A stretch of 64,000 nucleotides of DNA, from contig JAGSHN010000030.1 of NCBI GenBank assembly GCA_029855935.1, positions 1 to 64,000 of the forward strand. The letters run 5' to 3'. This DNA comes from Candidatus Thorarchaeota archaeon. Its GTDB lineage: Archaea; Asgardarchaeota; Thorarchaeia; Thorarchaeales; Thorarchaeaceae. Shown piece by piece: positions 2-64,000 of this stretch. The notes beneath the pieces are model-generated. The model ran no database searches. It worked only from the letters and a program-made list of their open reading frames with translations, and had not been told where the DNA came from. Each line of letters begins with the position of its first letter. The first letter of the stretch is position 1. The position numbers and the translations under genes were made by a program.

Positions 2-604
2 GGCTATGCCTGGGTCTTTCCACGGGGACCTCTGGTCGTCGTCGGCACAGGCGGCTTGGTCAGCGAGGTCAGAGCCTCGGGGAGACGTCTGCAGGAGTAT
101 CTGGACCACCTTGTACAGGAGACAGAGCCCGCGCGCTCCGAACTAAGTGGAGCAGAGACCGTCAGAACGGAGGCGGCACTTATGCCCCTTGCCGGTGTGG
201 TTCGTCCTTCGTCTGCAGAGCGAGTGATGCTCGCAGGTGACGCAGCAGGCCACTGCTCGCCCATAACAGGGGAGGGGATCTACTACTCTATGGTGGGCGG
301 GGAGTGTGCAGCGCGAGCCGCAGTTCACGCGGTCAGCAGGGGCGACTTCAGCGCGAAGACTCTGAGAGGGTACGAGAGAGCATGGACCCGGCGGATTGGT
401 TCCGACCTCAAGTGGGGTCTGTGGCTCCAGCGCAGACTGATCCGGAGCGGGTCGCGATCGCTGGGCCCGGCCCTGCTCTCGTCTGAGAAGAACATTCGCG
501 CTATTGGAGAGATGCTCCTTGGCGAGCGGACGGTGCTCCGCGCGATACTCTCTGTCGCTCCCTCGTACGCGCGCCTGAAGATAGGCGAGCGCTTCTCCCG
601 TTGA
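2..604 (+). CDS. Geranylgeranyl reductase family protein, 3' part (5' end outside window)
   Basis: The reading frame is open from base 2, so the gene begins before the window; only about 200 C-terminal residues are visible. The first residues, GYAWVFPRG, match the conserved 'GY.WVFP.G' segment of geranylgeranyl reductases, followed by a GDAAGHCSPITGEGI motif, the C-terminal FAD-binding loop of the family. These flavoproteins saturate the isoprenoid chains of archaeal membrane lipids or related prenyl groups. A GTXXG-like stretch (VVVGTGG) follows the start. The C-terminal third is helical, as in the family. The exact substrate (digeranylgeranyl-glycerophospholipid or another prenyl compound) cannot be decided from this fragment. 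Confidence 0.85.
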   Translation, partial: GYAWVFPRGPLVVVGTGGLVSEVRASGRRLQEYLDHLVQETEPARSELSGAETVRTEAALMPLAGVVRPSSAERVMLAGDAAGHCSPITGEGIYYSMVGGECAARAAVHAVSRGDFSAKTLRGYERAWTRRIGSDLKWGLWLQRRLIRSGSRSLGPALLSSEKNIRAIGEMLLGERTVLRAILSVAPSYARLKIGERFSR

Positions 605-1174
605 GATCTGGACCGATAGCATCGCACAGTTTCTTCGGACGCAGCGGGTGTCAACGACAGTGACTGGCCCACACCTCTGTGATGCGTCAGCGATACGTTA
701 GAGAATGACTTATATTGTGGGGTTCTTACCCCTGCAATCAATTGATTGAAGTACTCGCAACGGTCTTCTCTGAGGATTGCGGAAACCGCAACAGGGGCGT
801 CTGTCGCTCTCACCTCGGGAATACCGCCTGATAGAGGGACCCGACATACACAGGTCACACGTTGGTCAACCACCCAGGCAAGGGGCAGGCTCACATTGCC
901 CCACGTGATTGGGGACAGCGTTGGGCAACCAAGACGGGGAAGAAGGGACCGGAGATCCTCGGAGGCGAGGAAAGAACTGACACAAAGAGCCTGCCCTCGC
1001 CTCCAAATTCTCTACTGTTTCGCGGCCCGGTGACTCGAGGTTCTGTGGGTGACCCTGCTCTGCTGAGTCACGTCTGACACTCCTCCGACGTGCTCCCGAT
1101 TGCCCATCAGTGGTTCCGGTCTTGTGAACGGCCTGATTGTGTGCTGGTACTGACAATGGGTCATATCTCTGCTG
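605..1174. other. Gene-free stretch downstream of the reductase
   Basis: No ORF here has convincing protein-like composition; the short ones give low-complexity or basic products. A small hairpin (GGGG 719-722 with CCCC 729-732) is followed at once by a perfect 14-base palindrome, CAATCAATTGATTG, at 735-748. These could be a terminator for the reductase or a protein-binding site. The right end of the stretch runs into decayed CRISPR sequence. Confidence 0.5.
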
Positions 1175-1342
1175 TGCTCCATTCCCATCACGATTCGATT
1201 GAAACACCTACGTAGCTAAGCTATCGTGGAGGGGCCTCCCATCGTCTCACTCCCACTCTCAGTCCGATCCAAACATAGTACTATGAAGTTCTGGACCGAC
1301 AACACTGCGCCATTTCGACCCTACTTTTAGGCCGGTTGAAAC
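1175..1342 (-). CRISPR. Decayed CRISPR repeats (two clear, one doubtful), no longer a working array
   Basis: Two 31-base units on the minus strand match the repeat of the intact array at 63701-64000. The unit at 1312-1342 has 25 of 31 identical bases and the unit at 1244-1274 has 23 of 31, counted by eye without gaps. They are separated by 37 bases, inside the 36-40 range of the intact spacers. A third unit at 1175-1205 retains mainly the end of the repeat (CGATTGAAAC) with about 14 of 31 matches; its distance gives a 38-base spacer. Divergence between units suggests an abandoned locus. The adjacent leader remnant fixes the orientation. Confidence 0.72.
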
Positions 1343-1430
1343 TGCAGCTAGCTTGACCCGTTTCCGGCAAGATAAGTCCTACGGTGGTTGCTCTGTGCAC
1401 TCTTTCCCGGAAGTCTCTGGTCGTGCATAG
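1343..1430 (-). promoter_or_regulatory. Decayed CRISPR leader, paralogue of the leader at 63613-63700
   Basis: The reverse complement of these 88 bases aligns without gaps to the 88 bases just before the first intact repeat at 63701. I count about 61 identical positions. Shared blocks include GTGCACA and CAACCACC/CGACCACC. The likely TATA element is kept at the same distance from the first repeat: CTTATCTTG here (1368-1376 complement) and CTTATTTTG there. Similarity fades beyond this segment. Confidence 0.7.
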
Positions 1431-1675
1431 TGCGAGGTGAGTCCGAATCTCCAGCGAGGTGAGATGTGCGACTTGGGTCACCCCGGACGCGGCGGCGACC
1501 GTTCCCGCCTGATGACCGAACTATGATCGGATGGAACAAGATGGGACATAATGGCCTGCTGCTCGAAGGCCTCTGTCCTTCTGTGTCTGACGCAGGATGA
1601 TCTAGTGCTCGCTATCCCGCGCGACTTGATGAGGGCTTGGCGAGGTGTGGAGAGTGTCGGACTGGCCTCGGTCGC
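1431..1675. other. Intergenic sequence without recognised feature
   Basis: Nothing could be recognised between the leader remnant and the end of the small minus-strand gene. Reading frames through this stretch do not look like protein, and it does not resemble the sequence upstream of the intact CRISPR leader. Confidence 0.4.
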
Positions 1676-1945
1676 CTACGACGCCTCGGCACGCATCTTG
1701 TTGACAATGAGGCACTTCTGACGGTAGGCCTCCTCATCGAGGCTGGTGATGAACTGTTCGAGACGCTTGACGCGTGTGAATTCCTCCTCGATTCCGAGGT
1801 CGCGCACGGTCACAAGTGCCGTCTTGTTCTGAATTCTGACATAGATCCCACCAATGCCTACGTGATGCTTCATGTAGACTGGTTGATCCTGTCCCTTGAC
1901 CCGATAGAACCCTTGTCTTCTTAGCATCCTTGAGAACATCTGCAT
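1676..1945 (-). CDS. Hypothetical protein, 89 aa
   Basis: I do not recognise the family. The product is a small, mixed-charge, soluble protein beginning MQMFSRMLRRQGF, with a central beta-like stretch (IGGIYVRIQNKTALVTVRDL) and a helical charged C-terminus. It has balanced composition, unlike the overlapping plus-strand frame. Upstream on the minus strand there is a GGGAGGG ribosome-binding site about 9 bases before the ATG and an AT-rich TATA-like element near 1995-2003, both supporting a real gene. It stands alone between the CRISPR remnant and a long intergenic region. No catalytic motif or membrane segment is visible. Confidence 0.55.
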   Translation of the reverse strand: MQMFSRMLRRQGFYRVKGQDQPVYMKHHVGIGGIYVRIQNKTALVTVRDLGIEEEFTRVKRLEQFITSLDEEAYRQKCLIVNKMRAEAS

Positions 1946-2501
1946 CTGTGCAGCCCTCCCGGCGGCTGACGAAAATATGAGTACACGTATCTACAATATA
2001 AACACATCACATTCCGTTGAGTAAACGTATGAGATGGGCAGCTTTGCCATTCTGAACAAAGACTACAGAATGAGGCCTCCGGCAATACAAAACTCCGTTC
2101 TGCGGATTCTTTTTCTGCACTTGACCACGCAGCTGGCCAAGAAGTAACATCTATGTTCACCGTTTGGCGCGGAACAATCATACGTTTACTAGTTAGAGCA
2201 TCAGTGGGACATGGTAAATGGCATACGTGTACTAGGTATATGTCTAGGAATTTACTCACCGGGCACGGTACACGTGTGCATCGAGCAAGGCAGACCATTG
2301 TCCAGTGTGGGTGTACTCAGGCCCGACAATCGGACGCGCACTCACTACGCCGTTGGACAGGAGCTCTCCCGTGAAGTAACTCAATCCGATCGGCGCCGCT
2401 TGCCGTGTCCGTCAGATACTGTGTCGTCTACCGCAAGACCGGAATTCTTGATGTCCTCACAAGCGCATAATTCATATTGCAAGCTGGACTCAGCGGCATG
2501 T
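1946..2501. other. Intergenic region upstream of the membrane protein at 2502
   Basis: About 550 bases without a credible gene. The left edge holds the likely promoter of the minus-strand 89-aa gene. The right edge holds a TATA-like element (CATAATTCATAT, 2464-2475), about 30 bases before the start at 2502. An in-frame extension upstream of 2502 is open, but its composition is poor and it is not matched by the paralogue at 3272. Confidence 0.45.
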
Positions 2502-3173
2502 ATGTACAACCTGCCACACCCTCCAGGAGAGCACGCCAAGAAGAGCCCCTTCGCCCTCTTTGTAGCCGCCATCCTGATTGTCTCCGGCATAGTTCTGGCG
2601 ATCTACGAGTGGCTCAATGCATCATCGGTCTATGATTGGGCTGCGGGGTGGGGCTTGGCGACACCCCTGTATCTCATTTTCATAGGAGTGATGATGAGCG
2701 ACCTTGACTCGGCCGAGTCGCTGAGGAAACTGGCGGAACCGATAGCCACCGAGCTCAATCTGCCGACTTATGCAGAGAGCGACTTTGTATCTCTGAGGCG
2801 GATGTTCTTTGCATTGCTATTAGTGCTGACGCTACTGAGCGTTGTGCCGCTACAGTACCAATGGTCATTCGTCATGTGGTTTCTAGTCACCTTCGGTCTG
2901 CTTGCCACAGAGATCTCGGTGTATGTGTTCATAGGGGAGATGTTCCTCTATCTCGTCGTCGTGGCAGTTCTCTCTACAATCTCTCTCACTATTGCTACGA
3001 AGACTCATCCTCTTGGAGGACAGATCCTCGAACGGCTGCAGGAGATTGAGGCCGAGGAGAAGAAGCGCGAGAAAGAGCAGAAGGGTCAGCAAGAGAAGGC
3101 CGAACCGGAAAGTGCAAGCCCTGACGAAGGCGAGAGCGACTTGGATTTCGGATTCAGTCCCGACCAAGAATAG
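2502..3173 (+). CDS. Four-helix membrane protein with charged cytosolic tail
   Basis: 223 residues and no known family recognised. Hydrophobic segments lie at about residues 15-38, 45-65, 98-118 and 122-165 (the last probably two helices), followed by a strongly charged, Glu/Lys-rich tail of about 50 residues that looks like a coiled coil and then a disordered acidic end. The start was chosen at ATG 2502 because the neighbouring paralogue at 3272 begins at the same position (MYNLPHPP versus MYSTPQVP). The frame could extend to ATG 2451. A motif shared by both copies is AEPIA.EL.LP.YAE.D. The role is unknown; the tail may recruit a partner to the membrane. Confidence 0.7.
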   Translation: MYNLPHPPGEHAKKSPFALFVAAILIVSGIVLAIYEWLNASSVYDWAAGWGLATPLYLIFIGVMMSDLDSAESLRKLAEPIATELNLPTYAESDFVSLRRMFFALLLVLTLLSVVPLQYQWSFVMWFLVTFGLLATEISVYVFIGEMFLYLVVVAVLSTISLTIATKTHPLGGQILERLQEIEAEEKKREKEQKGQQEKAEPESASPDEGESDLDFGFSPDQE

Positions 3174-3271
3174 CGACCGGTTTCCTACGCCCTAACGATC
3201 ACGGCATCAATCACCCACAGGATCGAGGGGGGCCGTAACTACCACATTCTGATCTTGCCCTAGGGTGCCAC

Positions 3272-3935
3272 GTGTACAGCACACCTCAAGTACCAGAGGG
3301 GTTCACCACTGTAGGCCGCTTCAAGCTTCTCATTTCCCTCCTCTTCATAATGTCCGGTGTCGCCTTCGGAGCCTACAAGTGGCTCAACTCGTCGTCGTTC
3401 TACGAGTGGGCGACCGGATGGGGCTCAGCAGGGGCAGGCTACATCGTTGGTCACAGGACTGATCCTGTTTCCAAACACTCTGTCCACGGAGGCGCTCAGG
3501 GCTGAGGCCGAACCAATAGCCATCGAACTCCATCTCCCCGCCTATGCGGAGGCTGACTACGTAAGGCTCAAGCAACAACACTTCGTCCTGATCACAGTCC
3601 TGAATCTTGTTGCTGTGGCACCATTTCAGCTCCAGTGGTCTCTCTTCGTTCGGCTGTTGGTTGAATATGACCTCTACCTGACAGACGCGGCTCTGACGTT
3701 TGTCCTCCTTGAGTTCGTACCCTTTGTGCAGATTCCGGACAAGCTCTGCAGTCTTGCCAGCTGGATAGCCAAGAGATCCCACCCTGCTGGGGCTCAGATT
3801 CTGGAGCGACTCGAGCAGGTCCGACAGGAGGAACAGGAGACAATCGAACAGAGGGGCACGACAAGGCGTAGCAGGATGACCCTGAACACTTCCGTGATCA
3901 CAACTTCAGGCCTCGGTGACGACACACGCTGGTAA
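3272..3935 (+). pseudogene. Frameshifted tandem paralogue of the membrane protein at 2502
   Basis: The first frame (from ATG 3272) matches the upstream gene through 'YKWLNSSSFYEWATGWGSAG' and then loses similarity. From about 3445 similarity resumes in the next frame (LSTEALRAEAEPIAIELHLP...) and continues to a stop at 3933-3935. A single-base insertion (or two-base loss) near 3437-3460 explains this. The C-terminal part keeps the hydrophobic segments and the 'RSHPAGAQILERLEQV' motif that matches 'KTHPLGGQILERLQEI' upstream. It is either a recent pseudogene or a sequencing error in an intact gene; both halves otherwise look selected. Confidence 0.65.
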
Positions 3936-14198: not shown

Positions 14199-17000
14199 TT
14201 GGTCACAGCAACAGACTTTCCCGATGCGCTCCACTTCAAGCATCGCTGGAGAGACTATCAGAAGCAGGTGCTGAACCAGCTCGAGGACCTCCGTGACGAC
14301 GAACATATTCACATTGTGGCTGCGCCCGGCTCTGGAAAGACTGTCTTGGGCCTGGAGGTGATTAGGCGGCTTGGTCGTCCTGCGCTTGTGTTGGCCCCGA
14401 CAGTGGCCATCCGTGACCAGTGGATTGAGCGGCTGGTCCGCGACTTTCTACCTGAGGGGGCGGATGTGCCAGGATGGATCTCCACAGACATTCGGCGACC
14501 GGGCAAGATTACCGTTGCCACCTATCAGGCCCTGCACAGCGCGATGAAGGGAGAGCCGGACCCGGACGACCAGTGGGTGAGCGAGGAGGAGACACACTCC
14601 GCGGAGATAGCCCAACAGCATCAGACGGTGAACGTGTTCGGACAGGAGGATGGGGACGAGGACATAGAGCAACGCCTCGGAAGACGGCGGACGCATCGTC
14701 GTGACAGTAATCTACCCGACATCCTGAGGGCTCACAGCATTGATACCTTGGTCCTTGACGAGGCTCACCATCTGCGGACAGAGTGGTGGGGGAGTCTGAC
14801 AAGACTCGTCCATAGACTCTCAGTCTCTGTCGTCGTTGCGCTCACGGCCACACCGCCATATGATGTTCCCGAGTACGAGTGGGATCGCTACGTGGACCTG
14901 TGTGGTCCGATTGATATCGAGGTGCCAGTGCCCGAGCTTGTGGCCGTTGGGGACGTGTGCCCGCATCAGGATCTTATCTATCTGACAACCCCGACTGAGG
15001 ACGAGAGGCGCGTCATCAGCGAGTACCGGCAGAGGGTCGAGTTGTTTGTTGAGGAACTGAAACAGAATGCGGAGTTCATCGCCCTTCTCAGCAATCATCC
15101 CTGGGTCCAAGACCCAGAGTCGTACGCCGAAGAGGTCCTTGAGGAGCCAGACCTCTTCTCAAGCATGCTTGTCTTTCTTGGCGCAGCGGGCGTGGAGGTG
15201 CCAAAGAAGACCGTGAAGTTTGTCGCGGGGGAGGTGAGGCGCCTGCCGAGTCTCAACCTTGAGTGGCTGGAGATACTACTGACCGGCCTGCTGTTTCCGC
15301 ACGGCTCTCGCGGAGACACGCTCCAGCCAATCCTCGAACGAGTCCTCCAGGAACTGCGCGACATTGGTGCGGTGGAGCGCAGACACGTGATGCTTAGAGA
15401 GACCAAGACGGTCAAGAGGCTTCTGATGCAGAGCATCTCGAAGCTTGAGGGAATGAAGGAGATTGTCGTGACCGAGTACGAGTCACTCATCTCCGACATG
15501 AGAATGGTCATTCTCACAGACTACATCAGGAAGGGCTTCATCCCGCGCAACCGGGATGACGAACGGCCTCTGCTGAAGATTGGCGTGGTCCCTATCTTCG
15601 AGACACTACGGCGTGCGCGTATCCTCGGGTTACGTCTCGGGGTGCTGACAGGCTCTCTCGTCATAATCCCGTCTGAGAGTGAAGAGAGGTTTCTGAGCAT
15701 AGTACGCGGGAGGGAGATTGACCCCTTCGCTCTCAAGCTACGGCCCTATCCCGCGGACGACGACTACCTGCTGGTCGAGGTGAGCGGCTCACAGCGCTCG
15801 GTGATTGTGGGTGCCGTCACGGAGCTGTTCAACCAGGGAGGCCTGCACGTACTGGTTGGTACCACTGCACTCCTTGGGGAGGGTTGGGACGCCCCGACCG
15901 TGAACTCCTTGATACTGGCGAGCTTTGTGGGTTCCTATATGCTCTCCAACCAGATGCGGGGCCGTGCGATCAGGTCTGTCAGGGACGACCCCGACAAGAC
16001 CGCAAACATCTGGCATCTTGCTTGCGTCTATCCTGACAGTCACGATGCTGGCGGAGACTACGAGACGCTGGTGCGGAGGTTCAGAGCGTTTCTCGGGATC
16101 TCCTTCGAGTACGATATGATAGAGAATGGTATTGCCCGTACGGGGATAGGAGAACCCCCCTTCTCGAAGAAGAGCATAGACGCCTTCAACAAACGCATGC
16201 TGGAGATTGCTGAGGACAGGCAGGCAATAAGAGAGAGGTGGGAGGTTGCGCTACGTCGAGGAGAGGAGGGCGTCCGACTCGTCGAGGAGGTCAAGGCGCC
16301 ACCTGTACTCCTTCCCCGAGGATTCGTGTTTAGGAACACCATATCAGCAATGTTCTGGGAGGGCGTGGCTCTGAGCCTCTACGTCTTCGCTCAAATGGCG
16401 CGTGCGGCACGAAACTTGAGCTCGCTCCAAGAGCTATTGATCTTCATGGAGTTTGCAGCCATTATCGCAGTGCTGGTGGGACTGCCGAAGATGCTCAAGG
16501 CCGTGTGGCTGGCCATCCGCCACGGACCAGTGAAGTCAAGTCTGAGAGAGATAGGCCTTGCACTTGTCGAGGCACTCTACTACGCAGGCGCAATACGCAC
16601 ATCGCCCGACTACATAGAGGTGATTGCAGAGGACGATCCCCAGTTTCCTGGATGGGTATTCTGTCAGATCAAGGGCGGAACGAACAGGGACCGCTGGACG
16701 TATCAGAGGGCGCTGCAAGAGCTGTTGAACCCGATAAGGAATCCGCGATACCTCCTTGTGCGCTACTCCAGCCTGTGGAATCTCTTTGGACGGGTTGACT
16801 ATCACGCTGTGCCAGCGGTGCTCGGCACGAATAGAAGATACGCATCGAATTTCGCAGAACGTTGGGAGAGGCACGTTGGAAAGATGGCGCTGGTCTACAC
16901 ACGCAACGCGGAGGGGAGAAGAATTCTCCTTCAGGCGAGGACACACTCTCTCTCCGCCGCATTCCGCCCCCGAGCCGAGTCGATCACGCGATGGCGGTAG
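14199..17000 (+). CDS. Superfamily 2 helicase with C-terminal membrane hairpin
   Basis: 933 residues. SF2 motifs are plain: I AAPGSGKT (41-48), Ia LAPTVAIRDQW, II DEAH (187-190), III TAT (216-218), V GTTALLGEGWDAP (about 553-565) and VI QMRGRAIR (about 585-592). A long insertion separates the two RecA lobes. After the motor come two hydrophobic helices (about 716-735 and 747-768) and then a C-terminal region with 'QIKGGTNRDRWTYQRALQEL' and 'NPRYLLVRY'. TTG 14199 must be the start because an in-frame stop lies at 14190-14192. Anchored helicases of this kind are unusual; a role in defence or in DNA handling at the membrane is inference. The previous gene ends 11 bases upstream. Confidence 0.8.
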   Translation: MVTATDFPDALHFKHRWRDYQKQVLNQLEDLRDDEHIHIVAAPGSGKTVLGLEVIRRLGRPALVLAPTVAIRDQWIERLVRDFLPEGADVPGWISTDIRRPGKITVATYQALHSAMKGEPDPDDQWVSEEETHSAEIAQQHQTVNVFGQEDGDEDIEQRLGRRRTHRRDSNLPDILRAHSIDTLVLDEAHHLRTEWWGSLTRLVHRLSVSVVVALTATPPYDVPEYEWDRYVDLCGPIDIEVPVPELVAVGDVCPHQDLIYLTTPTEDERRVISEYRQRVELFVEELKQNAEFIALLSNHPWVQDPESYAEEVLEEPDLFSSMLVFLGAAGVEVPKKTVKFVAGEVRRLPSLNLEWLEILLTGLLFPHGSRGDTLQPILERVLQELRDIGAVERRHVMLRETKTVKRLLMQSISKLEGMKEIVVTEYESLISDMRMVILTDYIRKGFIPRNRDDERPLLKIGVVPIFETLRRARILGLRLGVLTGSLVIIPSESEERFLSIVRGREIDPFALKLRPYPADDDYLLVEVSGSQRSVIVGAVTELFNQGGLHVLVGTTALLGEGWDAPTVNSLILASFVGSYMLSNQMRGRAIRSVRDDPDKTANIWHLACVYPDSHDAGGDYETLVRRFRAFLGISFEYDMIENGIARTGIGEPPFSKKSIDAFNKRMLEIAEDRQAIRERWEVALRRGEEGVRLVEEVKAPPVLLPRGFVFRNTISAMFWEGVALSLYVFAQMARAARNLSSLQELLIFMEFAAIIAVLVGLPKMLKAVWLAIRHGPVKSSLREIGLALVEALYYAGAIRTSPDYIEVIAEDDPQFPGWVFCQIKGGTNRDRWTYQRALQELLNPIRNPRYLLVRYSSLWNLFGRVDYHAVPAVLGTNRRYASNFAERWERHVGKMALVYTRNAEGRRILLQARTHSLSAAFRPRAESITRWR

Positions 17001-63612: not shown

Positions 63613-63700
63613 CCGTGCACAACTAGAGGTTTCCAGGACGGGGTGCACACAGCGACCACCATAACGCTTATTTTGGCGAAAATGAGTGAAAATACCTGCG
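63613..63700 (+). promoter_or_regulatory. CRISPR leader
   Basis: The 88 bases before the first repeat are homologous to the decayed leader at 1343-1430. A TATA-like CTTATTTTG at 63668-63676 would start transcription close to the first repeat. The last bases before repeat 1 are A/T-rich. A repeat 3' end in GTTGAAAC and the leader side agree on plus-strand orientation. Confidence 0.75.
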
Positions 63701-64000
63701 GTTTGAATCGGACTAGAAGTAGGGTTGAAACCTCCTCCTGCTTGGCAGTGGCACTGGGTGTCTCGTCCTCGGTTTGAATCGGACTAGAAGTAGGGTTGAA
63801 ACATTCTTGATGGTAATATAAATATCACGATTAGACTTTGGTTTGAATCGGACTAGAAGTAGGGTTGAAACCGCACATGTGCTCCTCGAACAACTTGCTG
63901 TCATAGATGGTTTGAATCGGACTAGAAGTAGGGTTGAAACATGGAGTGTTATTTAATGAAACGATTTATGCTTCATGTTTGAATCGGACTAGAAGTAGGG
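63701..64000 (+). CRISPR. CRISPR array, four whole repeats and one cut by the window edge
   Basis: Identical 31-base repeats (GTTTGAATCGGACTAGAAGT followed by AGGGTTGAAAC) occur at 63701-63731, 63772-63802, 63841-63871, 63910-63940 and from 63977 to the window end (24 bases). Spacers are 40, 38, 38 and 36 bases. The GTTGAAAC end is the usual 5' crRNA handle of archaeal type I or III systems processed by Cas6. Spacers 2 and 4 are notably A/T-rich. The array continues past the window; no cas gene is visible. Confidence 0.97.

What the first reader, a model, noticed from the sequence alone, without database searches (positions are those of the whole stretch)
1175..1430. Decayed CRISPR leader and repeats 62 kb from the live array
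The minus strand at 1343-1430 is about 69% identical, without gaps over 88 bases, to the leader of the live array, and is followed by two clear degenerate repeats (25/31 and 23/31) with 37-base spacing, and perhaps a third. The possible TATA element keeps the same place. This is a dead sister locus of the same CRISPR type in inverted orientation, so the region between may once have held, or been moved with, the cas module.
Basis: seen in the sequence. Interest (0 to 1): 0.75.

Follow-up and report, generated by a model that had tools for sequence, protein, structure and literature searches.

The report
Dead three-repeat CRISPR array with leader
An archaeon related to Thorarchaeota carries, far from its working CRISPR immune loci, the mutated remains of a small extra CRISPR array with its leader; it is a genuine relic, but an ordinary kind of one.

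Summary
Minus strand 1430-1312 matches the leader plus first repeat of the live array (63613-63731) at 87/119 without gaps; the next best place scores 56. A model built only from live leaders of this and related genomes finds, in the whole 2.97-Mb genome, the four live leaders, then this locus (E = 2.7e-16), and no other leader. Two decayed repeats (25/31, 23/31) at 68-base spacing are clear; a third survives only in its first ~11 bases, like a terminal repeat. The locus is a dead leader + 3 repeats + 2 spacers, in a variable slot between two conserved genes; the slots of five relatives hold no such leader or repeats. Tails of the live arrays in the same genome show similar repeat decay at the same spacing, and sister genomes hold orphan leaders with few repeats, some decayed. 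A creA-like regulatory RNA is unlikely (leader present, no seed target in the cas regions, not conserved).

The parts
1343..1430 (-). decayed CRISPR leader, 62/88 identical to the live leader at 63613-63700
1312..1342 (-). decayed repeat 1, 25/31
1275..1311 (-). relic spacer 1, 37 nt
   Evidence: position between repeats
1244..1274 (-). decayed repeat 2, 23/31
1206..1243 (-). relic spacer 2, 38 nt
1175..1205 (-). probable terminal repeat, only first ~11 bases recognisable (9/11)
   Evidence: p about 5e-4
2..604 (+). conserved gene A bounding the variable slot (its start lies off the contig)
1676..1945 (-). conserved small gene B bounding the variable slot
63613..63700 (+). live leader of the same family
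63701..64000 (+). live array (continues past the window end; near-intact repeats to C24:66972, then decayed copies)

Best explanation
A dead satellite CRISPR array. A leader with three repeats and two spacers, of the family shared by the genome's type I-B/III loci, stood in a variable intergenic slot. It once could be transcribed and take up spacers with Cas proteins supplied from elsewhere (inferred). It stopped acquiring spacers, so its repeats were no longer refreshed, and leader and repeats then accumulated point mutations (inferred from the different changes in each repeat). It most likely does nothing now. Shown: homology, order, spacing, uniqueness in the genome, and breakage of leader and repeat positions that are invariant in intact relatives. 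Inferred: loss of acquisition and of function.
For: Homology and order. A model without the locus finds it at E = 2.7e-16, 61 bits, behind only the four live leaders. Motifs invariant in the eight leaders aligned are broken: GAGGTTT to GAGACTT, AGCGACCACCATAA to AGCAACCACCGTAG, and conserved repeat positions. The two repeats differ from the live repeat at 6 and 8 positions and share only one change. In-genome yardstick: the leader-distal tails of the live arrays contain repeats decayed to 15-24/31 at 66-69-base spacing. Family pattern: orphan leaders followed by one to four repeats, intact or decayed, in G002, G009, G014, G055 and a leader fragment in G020. The slot between genes A and B is about 76 bp in G024 and 1.5-5.5 kb in G002, G003, G009, G022, with no leader or repeat found there.
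Against: Substitutions fall more on positions that vary among related leaders (13/27 changed) than on conserved ones (7/41; Fisher p = 0.013; Mann-Whitney p = 0.004), and leader plus first repeat has no indel. So part of the divergence was under constraint. The simplest reading is a working phase before death, but residual function is not excluded. No transcription data.
Confidence: 0.88

Rival explanations
1. Repurposed mini-array: a creA-type guide RNA whose repeats diverged under selection and whose spacer guides Cascade to a promoter.
For: Degenerate repeats around a spacer are the creA layout (PMC8501985, PMC9458426); substitutions are biased to non-conserved positions.
Against: creA genes with two repeats lack a leader (PMC8501985), and this has one; no cas gene was found near it. 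The creA-type seed pattern of spacer 1 has no match in the fetched cas regions, and its genome-wide number is 9 besides itself against 5 for the reversed control. Repeat 1's last 8 bases carry 2 changes and repeat 2's first 23 carry 5, so the handles are not specially kept. Not found in relatives.
Confidence: 0.05
2. A diverged but still working array of a slightly different repeat family.
For: The leader's TATA-like CTTATCT also occurs in an array of G014 with intact repeats; ungapped alignment.
Against: Repeats 1 and 2 differ from each other at 12 of 31 positions, the third repeat is mostly gone, and leader motifs invariant in the leaders aligned are broken.
Confidence: 0.04
3. Half of an ancient inverted duplication that also carried the cas module between the two arrays.
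For: Opposite orientation of the two loci 62 kb apart.
Against: No flank homology between the two loci (local scores 18-20, near the chance level); interval collinear with G002 apart from two internal inversions; no cas gene found in it; three other arrays share the live leader on another contig.
Confidence: 0.02
4. Chance resemblance.
For: None beyond the low percentage identity.
Against: Score far outside shuffled and real controls; E = 2.7e-16 with an independent model.
Confidence: 0.001

Closest known systems
Live arrays of the same genome (C24:63613, C29:106559, C29:124563, C29:134971), near type I-B and type III cas operons
   Same: leader family, repeat, spacing, spacer length
   Different: live leaders are about 97% alike with near-uniform repeats and many spacers; this one has 73% identity and three decayed repeats
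Remnant CRISPR of Haloquadratum walsbyi HBSQ001 (PMC3119063)
   Same: leader and a few repeats left behind in an archaeon
   Different: there the leader is nearly identical to the intact one and the cas genes are gone from the genome; here the genome keeps cas operons and the relic itself has decayed
creA antitoxin genes of CreTA (PMC8501985, PMC9458426)
   Same: short arrays with divergent degenerate repeats
   Different: those lack a leader, are linked to cas genes and have a seed-matched target promoter; none of these was found here
Orphan mini-arrays of sister genomes (G002:C5:36206, G014:C26:75292, G014:C38:18540, G009:C62:40830)
   Same: same leader family, one to three repeats
   Different: less decayed; at other positions

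Membership tests
CRISPR array relic of the local leader family | leader homologous to live leaders | tested here: met
   62/88; E = 2.7e-16 with an independent model
CRISPR array relic of the local leader family | two or more repeats directly after the leader at regular spacing | tested here: met
   25/31 and 23/31 at 68 bases, partial third at 69
CRISPR array relic of the local leader family | loss of function | tested here: inconclusive
   invariant leader and repeat positions broken; no expression or acquisition data
functional CRISPR array | uniform repeats | tested here: not met
   repeats 1 and 2 differ from each other and from the live repeat
creA / CreTA | no leader | tested here: not met
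   leader present; feature from PMC8501985
creA / CreTA | seed (1-5, 7-11) match to a nearby or cas-linked promoter | tested here: not met
creA / CreTA | linked to the cas operon | tested here: not met
   cas operons on contig C29; no cas gene found in the window proteins scanned
creA / CreTA | Cas6-processed small RNA | not testable with these tools
   no transcript data

The most novel reading that the evidence does not exclude
The relic still makes a short guide RNA that the genome's type I-B Cascade uses to regulate a host gene, a leader-bearing counterpart of creA in an Asgard archaeon.
Probability: 0.04. Interest if true: 0.7.

Novelty: new member of a known kind. Interest (0 to 1): 0.25.

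Why it matters
It is a fossil of CRISPR turnover: leader and repeats can be recognised after about 27% divergence, and in this archaeal family orphan leaders with few repeats recur, so array birth and death can be followed with leader profiles where repeat finders would probably see nothing. It has little mechanistic importance by itself.

Tried and rejected
Inverted duplication with a cas module (no cas genes found, no flank homology, collinear interval). creA-like guide RNA. The 604-633 / 1287-1316 partial repeat (22/30): overlaps relic spacer 1, but no repeat is apparent beside 604-633; treated as chance. Known RNA families in 500-2300: none. Plasmid and phage collections: no match. A tree of leaders places the relic beside the genome's own leaders but with weak support (67%), so its age relative to the split from G002 is not resolved. 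Zero indels as a sign of selection: weakened by the live-array tails, which decay while mostly keeping their spacing.

Full report
Check of the observation. The reverse complement of 1343-1430 aligns without gaps to the live leader 63613-63700 with 62 of 88 identities; the next best place in the window has 44. With the first repeat added the score is 87/119, the next best being 56. Local alignment scores 85 against 15.5 +/- 2.1 for shuffles (maximum 28) and at most 24 in 954 real blocks. The repeats at 1312-1342 (25/31) and 1244-1274 (23/31) stand clear of the best chance match (18/31), and their spacing of 68 equals that of the live arrays. A third repeat at 1175-1205 is supported only in its first 11 bases (9/11, p about 5e-4).

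Genome context. The window is the first 64 kb of a 103.5-kb contig (C24) of a 2.97-Mb genome; by one protein, the nearest named record found is a Thorarchaeota genome. Four leaders about 97% alike begin live arrays: C24:63613 and three on C29. The C29 arrays neighbour a type III operon (Cas10-like, Csx19 and RAMP genes) and a type I-B-like operon (Cas6, a CXXC protein in the Cas8 position, Cas7, Cas5, Cas3, Cas4, Cas1). A sequence model built from eight leaders of this and five related genomes, without the locus in question, was searched through the genome: four live leaders at 107-110 bits, then C24:1313-1428 minus at 61 bits (E = 2.7e-16), then only repeats. So the leader block is found nowhere without a CRISPR link.

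Decay. Positions invariant in the eight leaders aligned are broken in the relic, in the leader and in the repeats. Of 32 differences from the live leader and repeat, 23 are transitions. Changes are commoner at positions that vary in the family (13/27) than at conserved ones (7/41). The likeliest reading is that the locus worked for part of its separate history and then decayed; that is inference. The same genome offers a yardstick: at the leader-distal tails of its live arrays the repeats fall to 15-24 of 31 while the spacing stays at 66-69 bases. The relic's repeats (25, 23 and 15) are similar.

Place and relatives. The relic lies between gene A (ends at 604) and gene B (1676-1945, minus), which keep the same order and orientation in several genera. 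The slot between them is about 76 bp in G024, 1.5 kb in G022, 2.9 kb in G003, 5 kb in G009 and 5.5 kb in G002, and none of these holds a leader or repeat of this family. In sister genomes the model finds other orphan leaders: G002:C5:36206 with three repeats (in a genome whose Cas1 is on another contig), G009:C62:40830 with one decayed repeat, G014:C26 with two, G014:C38 with one, G055 with two loci of three or four, and a fragment in G020. Short or decaying orphan arrays therefore recur in this family.

About 50 main proteins of the window were scanned with Pfam or PADLOC models and none is recognised as a cas protein of a type I or III system (the only CAS-labelled hit is a weak helicase-type match to typeIV_DinG, E = 8e-4, at 14199-17000). 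The interval from 0.2 to 62 kb matches G002:C5 from 131 to 65 kb in order, apart from two inverted internal segments, and the flanks of the relic and of the live C24 array are not homologous. The interval is thus ancestral backbone, and there is no sign that a cas module lay in it.

Rival function. creA genes were considered because degenerate repeats are their hallmark. By PMC8501985 the two-repeat creA genes lack a leader, and the characterised ones lie with cas operons and have seed matches to a promoter. Here the leader is present, the cas operons are on another contig, and the seed pattern of spacer 1 occurs in the genome 9 times besides itself, against 5 for the reversed control, with none in the fetched cas regions. 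A precedent for a remnant array in archaea is Haloquadratum walsbyi HBSQ001 (PMC3119063).

Verdict. A true, well-supported relic array; ordinary in kind; modest interest.

Noticed in passing
G000 C30:27075-27105 minus (L017:7076-7106): Isolated repeat with its first 22 bases identical to the live repeat and a degenerate last 9, no leader, no significant upstream partner (p 0.07). The terminal repeat of the C29:124563 array shows nearly the same pattern (21 of its first 22 bases kept, end degenerate), so it is probably a stray terminal repeat; a creA-like repeat is not excluded.
   Followed up: partly
C24:66972-67250, C29:107607-107800, end of the C29:124563 array, C18:28550-28720: Leader-distal tails of the live arrays hold a gradient of decaying repeats at mostly preserved spacing.
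   Followed up: yes
G000 C29 right end and C18 right end: The array starting at C29:134971 runs off its contig and an array with the same repeat runs off C18; probably one array broken by assembly.
   Followed up: no
L019, L095, L098, L099, L100, L104, L105: Orphan leaders followed by one to four repeats in sister genomes, intact or decayed.
   Followed up: partly
window 604-1676: Variable slot between two conserved genes, from about 76 bp to 5.5 kb among relatives; its contents elsewhere were not annotated.
   Followed up: partly
window 604-633 and 1287-1316: 22/30 direct repeat, one copy overlapping relic spacer 1 and the other at the stop codon of gene A; probably chance.
   Followed up: partly
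window 2211-3935: Protein without a Pfam match (2211-3173) with a 39% identical partial paralogue just downstream at 3462-3866.
   Followed up: no
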